Below are positions 55,181 to 59,597 of a DNA stretch of 59,597 nucleotides, piece by piece. Both the position numbers and the translations under genes were made by a program. Source of the stretch: Methanobrevibacter sp. (GTDB lineage Archaea; Methanobacteriota; Methanobacteria; Methanobacteriales; Methanobacteriaceae); NCBI RefSeq assembly GCF_017940815.1, contig NZ_JAGAXX010000082.1, positions 1 to 59,597 on the forward strand, read 5' to 3'. A model generated the notes under the pieces. The model was not told the DNA's origin. It saw only the letters and a program-made list of their open reading frames with translations, and did no database searches. Position 1 is the first letter of the stretch, and every line of letters starts with the position of its first letter.

Positions 55181-56392
55181 ATGAGCAACTCATTTTTTAA
55201 AAGATTAAAAAAAGAAGAAGAACCTCCTATTATTGAGGACCAGACTTCTGTTTGGGAAGATAGGATTTTTTGGGTTTCAACATTGCAAAAGATAGCATAC
55301 CCTGTCATAAGTAATTTATCCAAAGGCTCACTTAGAAAAAACATGCCTTTCGAATCAAAAACTGGTGAAGGACAGAAATTCGTTTATCTTGCAGCTTTTG
55401 CTCGTGTTTTCAATGGAATAGCTCCTTGGTTAGAGTTAGGTGTAGAAACTTCTGATGAAGGAAAAGTGCGTGAAAAGTATATTAAATTAACATTAAAGGC
55501 TATTTCCAATGCGGTTAATTCAAACAATAACGATTATATTCTTTTTGTGGAACCTAAACAATCTTTAGTTGATGTTGCTTTATTTGCTCAAGGATTGCTC
55601 AGAGCTAAAAAACAAATTTGGCTTAACTTGCCGATGGATGTTCAGGCCAGAATCATTCGTGAACTTAAAAATACAAGAATTATTGCACCATATGAGAACC
55701 ATTGGTTACTCTACACTTCAATGATTGAGGCGGCATTGCTCGAATTCACTGGTGAATGTGATAAGGAAAGACTAACCTATGCAATCTCCAAGTTTAGAGA
55801 TGAATTCTATGCTGGCGATGCGATTTATTCAGATGGAGAGGACTTTGATGCAGGCTATAAGAATAGTTTAATTATACATCCAATGTTAAATGATATTTTG
55901 GAGGTAATGAGAAAATATGGCCTTCAGGAAGGGGAATTTTTAGATGTGCAATTGATGAGATCCTCCAGACTGTCCTCACAGCTTGAAAGGATGATTTCTC
56001 CTGAAGGAACCTATCCTTTAGTTGGCAAATTTTTATCCGCCCGTTTCGGCGTTTTCCAATTACTTTCACAAGCGGCTTTGCTTAAGATATTGCCGAGAAA
56101 TATTGCTCCGGCACAAGTTAGAAGCGCTCTTACAAAAGTTATTCAAAGACAATTCACAGGCAATCAAAACTTCAGTAGCGATGGATGGTTATTATGTGGA
56201 TTGAATGGTTCACAAATTGATATTTGTGAAAAAGAAGAAAATACTGGCAGTAATTATTCATGTTGCGCAGTATTTTTAGCGTTAGGTCTTTCTTCAGAAG
56301 ATCCGTTTTGGAAAGATCCGTCTGAAGATTGGAGTAGTCTAAAAGCATGGAACGGCCATCAAATACAACCAGACCAATCAATTAGTTTTTAA
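55181..56392 (+). CDS. DUF2264 family protein
   Basis: A 403-residue protein of the DUF2264 family (FVYLAAFARVFNGIAPWLELG near residue 66, HWLLYTSMIEAALLEFTG near 178). DUF2264 is common in bacteria, especially Bacteroidetes and gut species, and probably acts on polysaccharide as an (alpha/alpha)6-like protein. There is no signal peptide, so it should be cytoplasmic. It neighbours nucleotide-sugar genes and ends 4 bases into the convergent wecC gene. Transfer from gut bacteria is possible. Confidence 0.8.
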   Translation: MSNSFFKRLKKEEEPPIIEDQTSVWEDRIFWVSTLQKIAYPVISNLSKGSLRKNMPFESKTGEGQKFVYLAAFARVFNGIAPWLELGVETSDEGKVREKYIKLTLKAISNAVNSNNNDYILFVEPKQSLVDVALFAQGLLRAKKQIWLNLPMDVQARIIRELKNTRIIAPYENHWLLYTSMIEAALLEFTGECDKERLTYAISKFRDEFYAGDAIYSDGEDFDAGYKNSLIIHPMLNDILEVMRKYGLQEGEFLDVQLMRSSRLSSQLERMISPEGTYPLVGKFLSARFGVFQLLSQAALLKILPRNIAPAQVRSALTKVIQRQFTGNQNFSSDGWLLCGLNGSQIDICEKEENTGSNYSCCAVFLALGLSSEDPFWKDPSEDWSSLKAWNGHQIQPDQSISF

Positions 56393-57627
56393 TTCAATTT
56401 GTATAAGTTCCCGTAATTAATTAATTTAATTTCCTCTGGAACTTCTTTTATTATATTTTTAGTGTCAAATATCACCGCTTTTTTCATGTTTTTAGCGATG
56501 AAATCATAATCTAATTCTTTAAACTCATCATGGTCGCACAATACCAAAATCAAGTTGGCATTTTCGACAGCTTCATTGAAACTGACAAAATTAGGATTTT
56601 CAATGTGAGGGTCATGAATTGCAATCTCATAATTTGCACTTAATTTCGCTATGATTTCATATGCCGGGCTTTCCCTGTCGTCTCCGGTATTTCCCTTATA
56701 TGATACTCCGAATACTGCAATTTTACCTTCTTTAATGATTTTTTTGACATTTTCACATACAAAATCAGGCATTGAGTTGTTTGTATCACGTGCAAGCTTA
56801 ATGATTTTAGCGGTTTCAGGTGCTTTTGCATAAATGAAGTAAGGGTCGATTGCAAGGCAGTGTCCTCCTACACCTGGGCCAGGTGAGTGCAAGTTGACTC
56901 TTGGATGCTTGTTTGCCATTTCAATAACGTCAAGTGCATTTACACCAATTTCAGCACATATTTTTGCAAGTTCATTGGCAAGTGCAATGTTGACGTCCCT
57001 GAATGTATTTTCCATACATTTGGACAGTTCAGCGGTTTTAGCTTCTGTAAGCATCAAATCGCCTTCAACAAATTGCCCATACACTTCGCTTGCTTTCACT
57101 GCACATTCCTCTGTCACGCCGCCTATGATACGGTCATTGTGGATTAGTTCCTCTATGATTTTTCCTGGAAGGACTCTTTCAGGGCAGTGGGCAAGATACA
57201 AATCTTCACCAATGGTAAATCCTGCCTTTTCAAATATAGGCTTGATGGTTTCATCAGTTGACATTGGAGCTATTGTTGATTCAATAATGACGGTGTTTCC
57301 TTTTTCAAGGAAAGGTATTATTGTTTCGCATGCAGTTATGACATAGCTCAAATCGCAGCTGTAGTTCTCAACAATGTATGGGGTCGGCACTGTAATTATG
57401 AATGCATCTGCTTTTTCGGGAGTTAAGGACGCTTTGTAGACTTTATTATTTACTGCATTCTTGATGATGTCGCTTATTCCAGGTTCTTCAATATGGATGA
57501 TTCCTTTATTTAAATTTTCTACAATCTTTTCGTTTATATCCACTCCAACTACTTCACAGTGGTTTCTTGTAAACAATGCTGCTGTTGGAAGTCCGATATA
57601 TCCTTGGCCCATAATACATATTTTCAT
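56389..57627 (-). CDS. wecC: UDP-N-acetyl-D-mannosamine dehydrogenase family
   Basis: A 412-residue UDP-sugar dehydrogenase. The NAD motif IMGQGYIGLPTAALF is at the start, followed by AHCPERVLPG near residue 150 and PGVGGHCLAIDPYF near 254; the C-terminal motif GVSYKGNTGDDRESP near 305 fixes the class. The presence of GVGGHCL-AIDP and length favour the WecC type over UDP-glucose dehydrogenase. The ATG at 57627 is chosen because GGGGAG lies 9-10 nt upstream; an upstream ATG overlaps it. Product is likely a uronate for surface glycan. Confidence 0.85.
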   Translation of the reverse strand: MKICIMGQGYIGLPTAALFTRNHCEVVGVDINEKIVENLNKGIIHIEEPGISDIIKNAVNNKVYKASLTPEKADAFIITVPTPYIVENYSCDLSYVITACETIIPFLEKGNTVIIESTIAPMSTDETIKPIFEKAGFTIGEDLYLAHCPERVLPGKIIEELIHNDRIIGGVTEECAVKASEVYGQFVEGDLMLTEAKTAELSKCMENTFRDVNIALANELAKICAEIGVNALDVIEMANKHPRVNLHSPGPGVGGHCLAIDPYFIYAKAPETAKIIKLARDTNNSMPDFVCENVKKIIKEGKIAVFGVSYKGNTGDDRESPAYEIIAKLSANYEIAIHDPHIENPNFVSFNEAVENANLILVLCDHDEFKELDYDFIAKNMKKAVIFDTKNIIKEVPEEIKLINYGNLYKLN

Positions 57628-57705
57628 AATTAGCATCTCCCCTCTTTTTATATAATTAAGTATAATATATATTTTAACTAATATTAAAGTTTTTAAGTGA
57701 TTGTC

Positions 57706-58545
57706 ATGAAGATTTTAATTACCGGTTCTAATGGAATGTTGGGCCATGATTTGATTGATGTTTTAAAAAATAAGCACGAACTGGTCCTAACTACTTCCAA
57801 GACACTTGATATAACAGATAAAAATGGGGTCATCGAGTTTATTGTTGACGCTCATCCAGACATTGTAATCAATTCGGCGGCATATACAGATGTTGACGGG
57901 TGCGAAAGCAATCCTGAATTGGCATATTCCGTAAATGGAGAGGGCGTTAAAAACTTGGCCATGGCCTGTAAGGAAGTTAATTGTCCATTGGTTCATATCA
58001 GTACCGATTATATCTTCAACGGTGAAAATGACAGGCCGTGGATTGAGGATGATGATATAGGTCCGATCAGCGTTTACGGCAAAAGCAAGCTTAAAGGAGA
58101 GGAATACATTCAGGAAATCCTTGATGAGTATTATATCGTAAGGACCGCATGGTTGTATGGTGTTAATGGCCGGAATTTTCCAAAAACAATGCTTGAATTG
58201 GCCAAAAACCACTCCGAAATCACCGTTGTTTATGATGAGGTGGGCACACCCACATACACTCGTGATTTGGCTTACGGCATTGGCCAGCTAATTGAAAGTG
58301 AAGCTTATGGCATTTACCATTTAACCAATTCCGGAAGCTGTTCCTGGTGTGAATTTGCGAGATATATCTTTGAGGTTGCGGATGTCAATGTCAATGTCGT
58401 TCCCGTCACTGCAAAAGAGTTTGCAAGGCCTGCGCCAAGACCTCATTATTCCGTTCTGGAAAATAGGAATTGGGCAGAAAATGGATTTGTACCGTTAAGA
58501 AGCTACAAAGAAGCTATTAAAGAATATATAGAGTTGATTAAATGA
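57706..58545 (+). CDS. rfbD: dTDP-4-dehydrorhamnose reductase
   Basis: A 279-residue short-chain reductase of the RmlD type, last step of dTDP-L-rhamnose synthesis. The Rossmann loop ITGSNGMLGHD is at the start, with VNSAAYTDVDGCE near residue 60, HISTDYIFNGEND near 100 and the YGKSKLKGE catalytic Tyr/Lys near 125. The ATG at 57706 is preferred to the GTG at 57697. RmlA, RmlB and RmlC are not in the window. The last bases overlap the barnase-like gene (ATGA), coupling a cell-surface sugar gene to a secreted RNase. Confidence 0.9.
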   Translation: MKILITGSNGMLGHDLIDVLKNKHELVLTTSKTLDITDKNGVIEFIVDAHPDIVINSAAYTDVDGCESNPELAYSVNGEGVKNLAMACKEVNCPLVHISTDYIFNGENDRPWIEDDDIGPISVYGKSKLKGEEYIQEILDEYYIVRTAWLYGVNGRNFPKTMLELAKNHSEITVVYDEVGTPTYTRDLAYGIGQLIESEAYGIYHLTNSGSCSWCEFARYIFEVADVNVNVVPVTAKEFARPAPRPHYSVLENRNWAENGFVPLRSYKEAIKEYIELIK

Positions 58546-58991
58546 ACAAGAAATATGTTTTTGTCATTGCATTAGTCATTGCTCTTTTTAGCATTTCTGC
58601 AGTGAGTGCAGGATTTCTGGACTTTTTGGGTTTAGGAGGCCATGACAGCAATGTTAATGTGGTGGAAGATGGAGAGTACTGCACAGTTGATGAAGTTGCA
58701 GCCTATATCAAGGAGTTTCACAAACTTCCAAGTAACTACATAACCAAAAAAGAGGCACAGAGCCTAGGCTGGCATGGAGGCCCACTTAAGAAATATGCTC
58801 CTGGAAAAAGCATCGGTGGAGACACATTTACAAATAGGCAACATGTCTTGCCGGATAGCAGTTCCAAATACATTGAATGCGATATCAATGCAAACGGAAC
58901 CAGCCGTGGAGCTGAAAGGATAGTTTATAATACTGGGGATTATTCAGTCTACTATACATCTGATCATTACAGCACATTTAAAGAGGTATAG
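58542..58991 (+). CDS. secreted barnase-like ribonuclease
   Basis: A 149-residue protein with a signal peptide (residues 1-23, ending AVSA) and a domain of about 105 residues that matches barnase throughout: EFHKLPSNYITKKEAQSLGW, APGKSIGGDTFTNR and SDHYSTF. Catalytic residues by comparison with barnase are Glu112 (E73), Arg126 (R87), His142 (H102) and Lys61 (K27). It should be exported and cleave RNA. Its start overlaps the rfbD stop by 4 bases, and a barstar-like gene follows one base after its stop. Archaeal barnase is unusual; this looks like a weapon or scavenging enzyme. Confidence 0.9.
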   Translation: MNKKYVFVIALVIALFSISAVSAGFLDFLGLGGHDSNVNVVEDGEYCTVDEVAAYIKEFHKLPSNYITKKEAQSLGWHGGPLKKYAPGKSIGGDTFTNRQHVLPDSSSKYIECDINANGTSRGAERIVYNTGDYSVYYTSDHYSTFKEV

Positions 58992-58992
58992 C

Positions 58993-59220
58993 ATGCAATT
59001 GGATGGAAAGTTGATAAAGGAAAACGGCCATGACTATCTTATGGAAGCACTGAATTTTCCGGATTATTATGGTAAAAATTTGGATGCATTGTATGACTGC
59101 CTATGTGAGATTGAATGTGAAATAATTCTGGTGAATTCCGATGATGTCGATGACGATATCCTTGAAACCTTCAAGGATGCCGCAGATGAAAACGATTCAC
59201 TTGAATTTAGTATACAATAG
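58993..59220 (+). CDS. barstar-like ribonuclease inhibitor
   Basis: A 75-residue acidic protein with no signal peptide, aligned with barstar: PDYYGKNLDALYDCL near residues 23-37 keeps the Tyr, Asn, Asp31 (barstar D35) and Asp35 (D39). Asp62 in FKDAADEND stands where barstar has Glu76. It lacks about 14 residues compared with barstar. It starts one base after the barnase-like stop, with GAGG upstream of the ATG. Role by family: cytoplasmic inhibitor that protects the producer from the RNase before export. Confidence 0.87.
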   Translation: MQLDGKLIKENGHDYLMEALNFPDYYGKNLDALYDCLCEIECEIILVNSDDVDDDILETFKDAADENDSLEFSIQ

Positions 59221-59382
59221 AAAATTTAAAATTTATAGTATATTTCTTTTAATTTTTATACATATTATTTACATTCATAAACTTAACTGATAGTTCTTCA
59301 AATATCACTAAAGTTAATGTTATGTATCCGGAACAGGATACTCCTGAATAACCGATTTATCTTTATAATGCAAGAATACCAT

Positions 59383-59415
59383 GACCTCTTTAGGTCGGGG
59401 ATGAATTGCACTGTT
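59383..59415 (+). mobile_element. possible IS605/TnpB right-end remnant
   Basis: GACCT-CTTT-AGGTC is a perfect 5-bp hairpin followed by GGGGATGAATTGCA. The combination AGGTCGGGGATGAATTGC is like the right end/omega-RNA 3' region found after TnpB genes in archaeal and bacterial IS605-group elements. Before it, an open frame ends at 59351 (last residues VNVMYPEQDTPE), which might be a decayed C-terminus of such a protein. No intact tnpA or tnpB exists here, and the rest of the last 377 bases is AT/T-rich with no gene I can support. Confidence 0.35.
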
Positions 59416-59597
59416 TTGTGTACTATCTTTTTTTAATAACTTTTATTTTTATTTATTTTGTGTTTTTTTGGATGTTATTTTTTTTTTACATGATTTTTTT
59501 CAGTATACATTTTTTTTATGTTGATTGTAATATTGTTTTGGGTGTGAAAAATTGTTTTGAGTACGTTATTTGATTACTTTCCAAATGCTCTTGCTCT

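What the first reader, a model, noticed from the sequence alone, without database searches (positions are those of the whole stretch)
57706..59220. Exported barnase and a barstar-like inhibitor translationally coupled to a cell-surface sugar gene in an archaeon
The protein at 58542-58991 has a signal peptide and all barnase catalytic residues (Glu112, Arg126, His142, Lys61), and the next gene keeps the barstar YYG-N-LDALYD core. rfbD, RNase and inhibitor overlap or sit one base apart. Barnase-barstar pairs are known from bacteria. In a methanogen whose wall is pseudomurein, an exported RNase with cytoplasmic immunity suggests inter-species antagonism, nucleic acid scavenging, or DNA/RNA turnover around cells. 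A gene order with envelope sugar genes hints at cell-surface strain diversification and effector-immunity cassettes.
Basis: partly seen in the sequence, partly recalled or inferred. Interest (0 to 1): 0.88.

Follow-up and report, generated by a model that had tools for sequence, protein, structure and literature searches.

The report
Exported barnase-barstar pair in gut methanogens
A gut methane-producing archaeon carries a real exported RNA-cutting enzyme with its own inhibitor, a bacterial-type pair already reported from a few methanogens, which in this genus sits inside the operon for a cell-surface sugar and is conserved too tightly to look like a diversifying weapon.

Summary
58542-58991 encodes a signal-peptide-bearing barnase-family RNase (PF00545, E=5e-18; barnase in the PDB, 4e-27). 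58993-59220 encodes a compact barstar (PF01337, 5e-13). The RNase start overlaps the rmlD stop (ATGA); the inhibitor starts one base after the RNase. One residue was misassigned: the Lys27 equivalent is Lys69, not Lys61.
The RNase occurs once per genome in 89 of 151 Methanobacteriales genomes; a barstar lies beside it in 87 and never occurs alone. In the window's genus the pair sits between rmlD and rmlA of the dTDP-rhamnose operon; seven genus-mates without it have rmlD next to rmlA. In other genera it lies elsewhere. Catalytic residues are invariant, RNase dN/dS (0.06) is below that of rmlD (0.10), and the inhibitor's contact residues hardly vary. This argues against strain-diversifying effector-immunity cassettes and for a conserved exported RNase with a safety inhibitor. 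The closest bacterial relatives (gut Clostridia, Treponema, Kiritimatiellae) mostly have the same secreted RNase plus barstar; the better trees give one archaeal clade. Barnase-barstar in methanogens was reported in 2012, so this is a new member of a known kind. The extracellular role is inferred.

The parts
57706..58545 (+). rmlD, dTDP-4-dehydrorhamnose reductase; upstream gene of the operon
   Evidence: PF04321 E=1e-102, TIGR01214 338 bits; directly upstream of the RNase in 55 of 56 carriers of the genus
58542..58991 (+). Exported barnase-family RNase, 149 aa
   Evidence: PF00545 E=5e-18; barnase 3.6e-27; Lys69, Glu112, Arg122, Arg126, His142 invariant in 84 archaeal and 42 bacterial relatives
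58542..58610 (+). Putative Sec signal peptide, residues 1-23
   Evidence: sequence inspection; matching N-terminal hydrophobic segments in relatives
58542..58545 (+). ATGA overlap of RNase start and rmlD stop (possible translational coupling)
   Evidence: same 4-base overlap in 43 of 55 loci
58680..58988 (+). Barnase catalytic domain, residues 47-149
58983..58987 (+). GAGGT ribosome-binding site of the inhibitor, inside the RNase 3' end
   Evidence: match of 5 or more bases in 43 of 53 loci against 4% at random positions
58993..59220 (+). Barstar-type inhibitor, 75 aa, no signal peptide
   Evidence: PF01337 E=4.7e-13; profile hit to barstar 9e-17; model pLDDT 96.9
59065..59106 (+). Conserved inhibitor segment YYGKNLDALYDCLC with Asp31 and Asp35
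   Evidence: Asp31 and Asp35 invariant in all archaeal first copies that cover them
59356..59597 (+). End of a repeated, probably TnpB-type element that breaks the contig between the inhibitor and rmlA
   Evidence: 97-98% copies near the ends of five other contigs; the contig holding rmlA-rmlC-rmlB begins with a TnpB-like C-terminus (by inspection)

Best explanation
This is a genuine barnase-barstar module. The RNase is made with a signal peptide and leaves the cell (a putative lipoprotein in another genus). The small barstar has no signal and stays in the cytoplasm, where it plugs the active site of any RNase not yet exported, with Asp31/Asp35/Asp62 facing Lys69/Arg99/Arg122/Arg126. The translation layout fits a safety arrangement: the RNase starts by overlap with rmlD and usually lacks a good ribosome site, while the inhibitor has its own. 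Outside, the enzyme most likely degrades extracellular RNA from lysed neighbours, as a scavenging or clean-up enzyme made together with envelope-sugar synthesis. Shown: gene identity, catalytic and contact residues, co-inheritance, operon position, purifying selection. Inferred: export, RNase activity, inhibition, translational coupling, and the extracellular role, which is the least certain step.
For: Family and residues. RNase half of a relative's model matches barnase with TM about 0.9 of the target. Co-inheritance in 87 of 89 genomes, never inhibitor alone. Export signal or lipobox in the archaeal relatives. RNase dN/dS 0.058, rmlD 0.098, barstar 0.237, and near-invariant contact residues, the pattern of a conserved enzyme rather than a diversifying toxin. 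Inhibitor ribosome site in 43 of 53 loci against 9 of 53 for the RNase. Bacterial homologues binase and balifase are secreted and induced by phosphate starvation, and balifase forms an operon with its inhibitor (PMC5021464).
Against: No activity, export or inhibition data exist. No phosphate or nutrient regulation was looked for here, and the rml operon position does not by itself suggest scavenging. The complex could not be inspected, and Foldseek did not list barstar for the inhibitor model. The Glu60 equivalent is Gln in the window and in 77 of 84 archaeal relatives, so base preference or rate may differ from barnase.
Confidence: 0.55

Rival explanations
1. Secreted weapon with immunity: the RNase harms competing bacteria, archaea or protozoa that take it up and lack a matching barstar, and the barstar is the immunity protein.
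For: Toxin-then-immunity gene order with dedicated inhibitor. Zhang et al. 2012 treat barnase-barstar pairs as incipient toxin-immunity systems (PMC3482391). Archaea can kill bacteria with exported enzymes (PMC12352652). Carriers live in crowded guts.
Against: No delivery module or uptake domain in the 149-aa protein or beside it. Strong purifying selection on the RNase and near-invariant inhibitor contacts across genera, so carriers should be immune to each other. Many rumen bacteria carry the same pair.
Confidence: 0.2
2. Surface maintenance: the RNase acts at the cell envelope on RNA in the matrix or mucus, changing aggregation or adhesion, which would explain its co-expression with rhamnose synthesis.
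For: Fixed place inside the rml operon in the genus; putative lipoprotein form in genus g9.
Against: In other genera the pair is not near sugar genes, and genus-mates keep the rml operon without it.
Confidence: 0.15
3. Intracellular system such as toxin-antitoxin or anti-phage abortive infection, in which the RNase acts on the cell's own RNA when the inhibitor is lost.
For: Adjacent, co-inherited RNase and inhibitor genes.
Against: Signal peptide or lipobox in the relatives; no hit in the defence-system library; fixed-site inheritance in the genus.
Confidence: 0.05

Closest known systems
Barnase and barstar of Bacillus amyloliquefaciens (PF00545, PF01337)
   Same: RNase core 54% identical in the alignment, same catalytic residues and fold; inhibitor with the same Tyr-Tyr-Gly-x-Asn-x-Asp-Ala-x-x-Asp segment.
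   Different: Archaeal host; pair adjacent and downstream of rmlD; inhibitor shorter (75 against 89 aa) and lacking one helix in the model; Gln at the Glu60 position, Tyr at barstar Trp38, Asp at barstar Glu76.
Balifase and its inhibitor of Bacillus licheniformis (PMC5021464)
   Same: Secreted barnase-type RNase in one operon with a barstar-type inhibitor.
   Different: Bacterial, with a phosphate-starvation-induced promoter of its own; not in a sugar operon.
Secreted or lipoprotein RNase plus barstar of gut Clostridia, Treponema and Kiritimatiellae
   Same: RNase core 53-62% identical to the window; hydrophobic N-terminus or lipobox in most, barstar next door in most.
   Different: Longer stretch after the signal; longer barstar segment (81-98 against 70-81 aa); Glu at the Glu60 position.
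Barnase-barstar-like systems of methanoarchaea (PMC3482391) and the barnase of Methanosphaera stadtmanae (PMC3445992)
   Same: Same kind of pair in the same archaeal family; Methanosphaera genomes here carry it.
   Different: Those papers, as far as their text was searched here, do not describe the rml insertion, the empty sites or the selection pattern.

Membership tests
Barnase family (PF00545) | Profile match above the curated cut-off | tested here: met
   65.8 bits against 24
Barnase family (PF00545) | Catalytic Glu73, His102, Arg83, Arg87, Lys27 | tested here: met
   Glu112, His142, Arg122, Arg126, Lys69; invariant in 84 archaeal and 42 bacterial relatives
Barnase family (PF00545) | Barnase fold | tested here: met
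   RNase half of the model of a relative (L182), TM about 0.9 of barnase
Barnase family (PF00545) | Guanine-preferring RNA cleavage | not testable with these tools
   needs an enzyme assay; the Glu60 position is Gln
Barnase family (PF00545) | Secreted protein | tested here: inconclusive
   signal peptide by inspection only
Barstar (PF01337) | Profile match above the curated cut-off | tested here: met
   49.4 bits against 23.4; profile hit to solved barstar 9e-17
Barstar (PF01337) | Contact residues Asp35, Asp39, Glu76 | tested here: met
   Asp31 and Asp35 invariant; Glu76 position is Asp62, a conservative change
Barstar (PF01337) | Barstar fold | tested here: inconclusive
   confident model with barstar-like element order minus one helix, but no barstar among the Foldseek matches listed
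Barstar (PF01337) | Tight binding to the cognate RNase active site | not testable with these tools
   no complex coordinates available
Polymorphic toxin / diversifying effector-immunity system | Variable toxin domain or diversifying selection | tested here: not met
   one RNase type throughout, dN/dS 0.058
Polymorphic toxin / diversifying effector-immunity system | N-terminal delivery module | tested here: not met
   only an N-terminal signal and a short linker before the RNase domain
Type II toxin-antitoxin system | Intracellular toxin | tested here: inconclusive
   signal peptide or lipobox argues against it; localisation was not measured

The most novel reading that the evidence does not exclude
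An inter-domain weapon tied to surface-sugar expression: gut methanogens acquired a clostridial secreted RNase with its inhibitor, placed it inside the rhamnose operon of one genus, and use it to suppress neighbours lacking a compatible barstar.
Probability: 0.15. Interest if true: 0.75.

Novelty: new member of a known kind. Interest (0 to 1): 0.36.

Why it matters
It indicates that an exported RNase with a dedicated inhibitor is a widespread, strongly conserved trait of host-associated Methanobacteriaceae rather than a strain curiosity. That makes one part of the extracellular life of gut methanogens testable: whether they digest RNA from lysed neighbours or use the enzyme against them. The clean site in the rml operon, with natural genus-mates lacking the pair, offers a ready comparison.

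Tried and rejected
A first RNase tree showed two archaeal groups, one (genus g9) inside Lachnospiraceae. It included poorly aligned N-terminal columns and long branches. With fewer rows, core columns only, or RNase plus barstar joined, archaea formed one clade. The two-origin reading is withdrawn, though g9 plus two Lachnospiraceae rows is not rejected by an AU test (p 0.21). Methanosphaera as one clade was not rejected either (p 0.43), so no transfer from Methanosphaera into the window's genus is claimed. Anti-phage system: no PADLOC hit. RNA elements in 56000-59597: none. A class-wide repeat of the family search added one genome and nothing new. The complex was not examined because model coordinates are not released. 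The literature searches made found no paper treating this pair in Methanobrevibacter.

Full report
WHAT IS THERE. rmlD (57706-58545) is dTDP-4-dehydrorhamnose reductase. The 149-aa protein at 58542-58991 has a Sec-type signal peptide by inspection and matches Pfam Ribonuclease at 5e-18 and solved barnase at 3.6e-27. The 75-aa protein at 58993-59220 matches Barstar at 4.7e-13; phmmer finds solved barstar at 1.6e-5 and a profile of its relatives at 9e-17 over nearly the whole chain. The RNase start overlaps the rmlD stop as ATGA; the inhibitor starts one base after the RNase stop. One detail was wrong: the barnase Lys27 equivalent is Lys69, not Lys61.

THE WHOLE OPERON. The contig ends at 59597. 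Bases 59356-59597 recur at 97-98% identity near the ends of five other contigs. rmlA lies at bases 537-1409 of contig C4, followed by rmlC and rmlB, and that contig starts with what reads as the C-terminal part of a TnpB-like protein. So in this genome a TnpB-type element most likely sits between the inhibitor and rmlA and broke the assembly; that the two contigs adjoin is inference. In genus-mates the order is rmlD, RNase, barstar, then rmlA, rmlC, rmlB. rmlD is directly upstream in 55 of 56 carriers, 43 of them with the 4-base overlap, and rmlA is found downstream on the fetched stretch in 50. In some carriers other genes, such as a putative export transporter, lie between the pair and rmlA.

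INSERTION OR LOSS. Nine genus-mates without the pair have an rmlD match. In seven of them rmlD and rmlA are neighbours with a short gap; in two (G041, G046) other DNA follows rmlD. On an rmlD tree some pair-free genomes stand apart from the carriers and two lie among them. The simplest reading is one insertion at this junction in the genus and later losses; the tree alone cannot separate gain from loss.

DISTRIBUTION. The RNase occurs once per genome in 89 of 151 Methanobacteriales genomes, in 5 of 19 genera. Barstar occurs in 87, next to the RNase and never in a genome without it. The two exceptions are G087, where the contig ends at the RNase, and G011. Named carriers in the public collection are Methanobrevibacter (M. 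thaueri, M. olleyae and uncultured gut types) and Methanosphaera. In other genera the pair lies in unrelated neighbourhoods. In genus g9 the RNase has a lipobox in 14 of 16 cases. The link with surface sugars is therefore a property of the window's genus, not of the system.

CONSERVATION AND SELECTION. The five catalytic residues are invariant in 84 archaeal and 42 bacterial relatives. The barstar Asp35 and Asp39 equivalents are present in every archaeal first copy that covers them, and the Glu76 position is Asp in 85 of 86. Within the genus (53 genomes), mean pairwise identity is 84% for the mature RNase, 80% for rmlD and 66% for barstar; median dN/dS is 0.058, 0.098 and 0.237. These ratios use a simple pairwise count on pairs with dS up to 1.5 and are rough. 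The order still argues that the RNase is a working enzyme under strong purifying selection and that the inhibitor is held at its contacts and freer elsewhere. A diversifying effector-immunity cassette should show the opposite.

EXPRESSION LOGIC (inferred). The inhibitor start has a ribosome-site match of five or more bases in 43 of 53 loci; the RNase start has one in 9 of 53; random positions in 4%. With the ATGA overlap this suggests that the RNase is translated by coupling to rmlD while the inhibitor is initiated on its own, which would favour inhibitor excess.

STRUCTURE. A relative's pair (L182), read as one chain with the stop codon as glycine, gave pLDDT 86.6 and pTM 0.63; Foldseek matched its RNase half to barnase with TM about 0.9 of the target. 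The window inhibitor gave pLDDT 96.9 with a barstar-like order of elements lacking one helix, but no barstar was among the Foldseek matches listed.

ORIGIN. The nearest bacterial relatives are gut Clostridia, Treponema and Kiritimatiellae/Verrucomicrobia. Most have a hydrophobic N-terminus or lipobox and a barstar beside the RNase. Trees of the RNase core and of RNase plus barstar put the archaea in one clade (support 100/95 and 95/92), next to two Lachnospiraceae rows or to an Anaerovorax strain. An earlier tree disagreed and was judged unreliable. Bacterial rows were chosen by closeness to the window protein and the trees are unrooted, so direction and donor are inference.

PRIOR KNOWLEDGE. 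Zhang et al. [quoted passage not shown] Lurie-Weinberger et al. 2012 (PMC3445992) name a putative secreted RNase (barnase) of M. stadtmanae among laterally transferred genes. The pair in archaea is thus known. The distribution, the empty site in the rml operon, the selection pattern and the single-clade trees are additions made here. In Bacillus, binase and balifase are induced by phosphate starvation, and balifase shares an operon with its inhibitor (PMC5021464), which is why RNA scavenging is the preferred role.

VERDICT. A real and well-conserved exported-type barnase with barstar; new member of a known kind. The most likely role is hydrolysis of extracellular RNA with a cytoplasmic safety inhibitor. 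A weapon is possible but less supported.

Noticed in passing
window 59356-59597 and L255 1-229: A repeated, probably TnpB-type element ends the window contig; the contig with rmlA-rmlC-rmlB begins with a TnpB-like C-terminus, so the rml operon of this genome is probably interrupted there.
   Followed up: partly
L070 6076-6321, L127 2016-2258, L095, L096, L098, L114: Six Methanosphaera genomes carry a second barstar-like gene right after the first; it has lost most contact residues and two tested copies miss the Pfam model. Possibly a decayed copy or an inhibitor of something else.
   Followed up: partly
L145 3088-3546 (G011): The only RNase with room on its contig but no recognisable barstar; a long branch on the tree.
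   Followed up: no
L151 5691-5939 (G075): RNase gene broken by a stop codon while the barstar beside it looks intact.
   Followed up: no
L102 5573-6025 (G065): The one carrier of the window's genus with the pair outside the rml operon and a divergent RNase; could be a separate transfer or a misbinned contig.
   Followed up: no
window 58542-58991, Cys47 and Cys113: Cys113 is present in nearly all archaeal and all 42 bacterial relatives, and Cys47 in all of the window's genus in the core alignment; barnase has neither in the alignment. A disulfide in the exported enzyme is possible.
   Followed up: no
window 58839-58841 (Gln100): The barnase Glu60 position is Gln in 77 of 84 archaeal relatives but Glu in all 42 bacterial ones; base preference may differ.
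   Followed up: no
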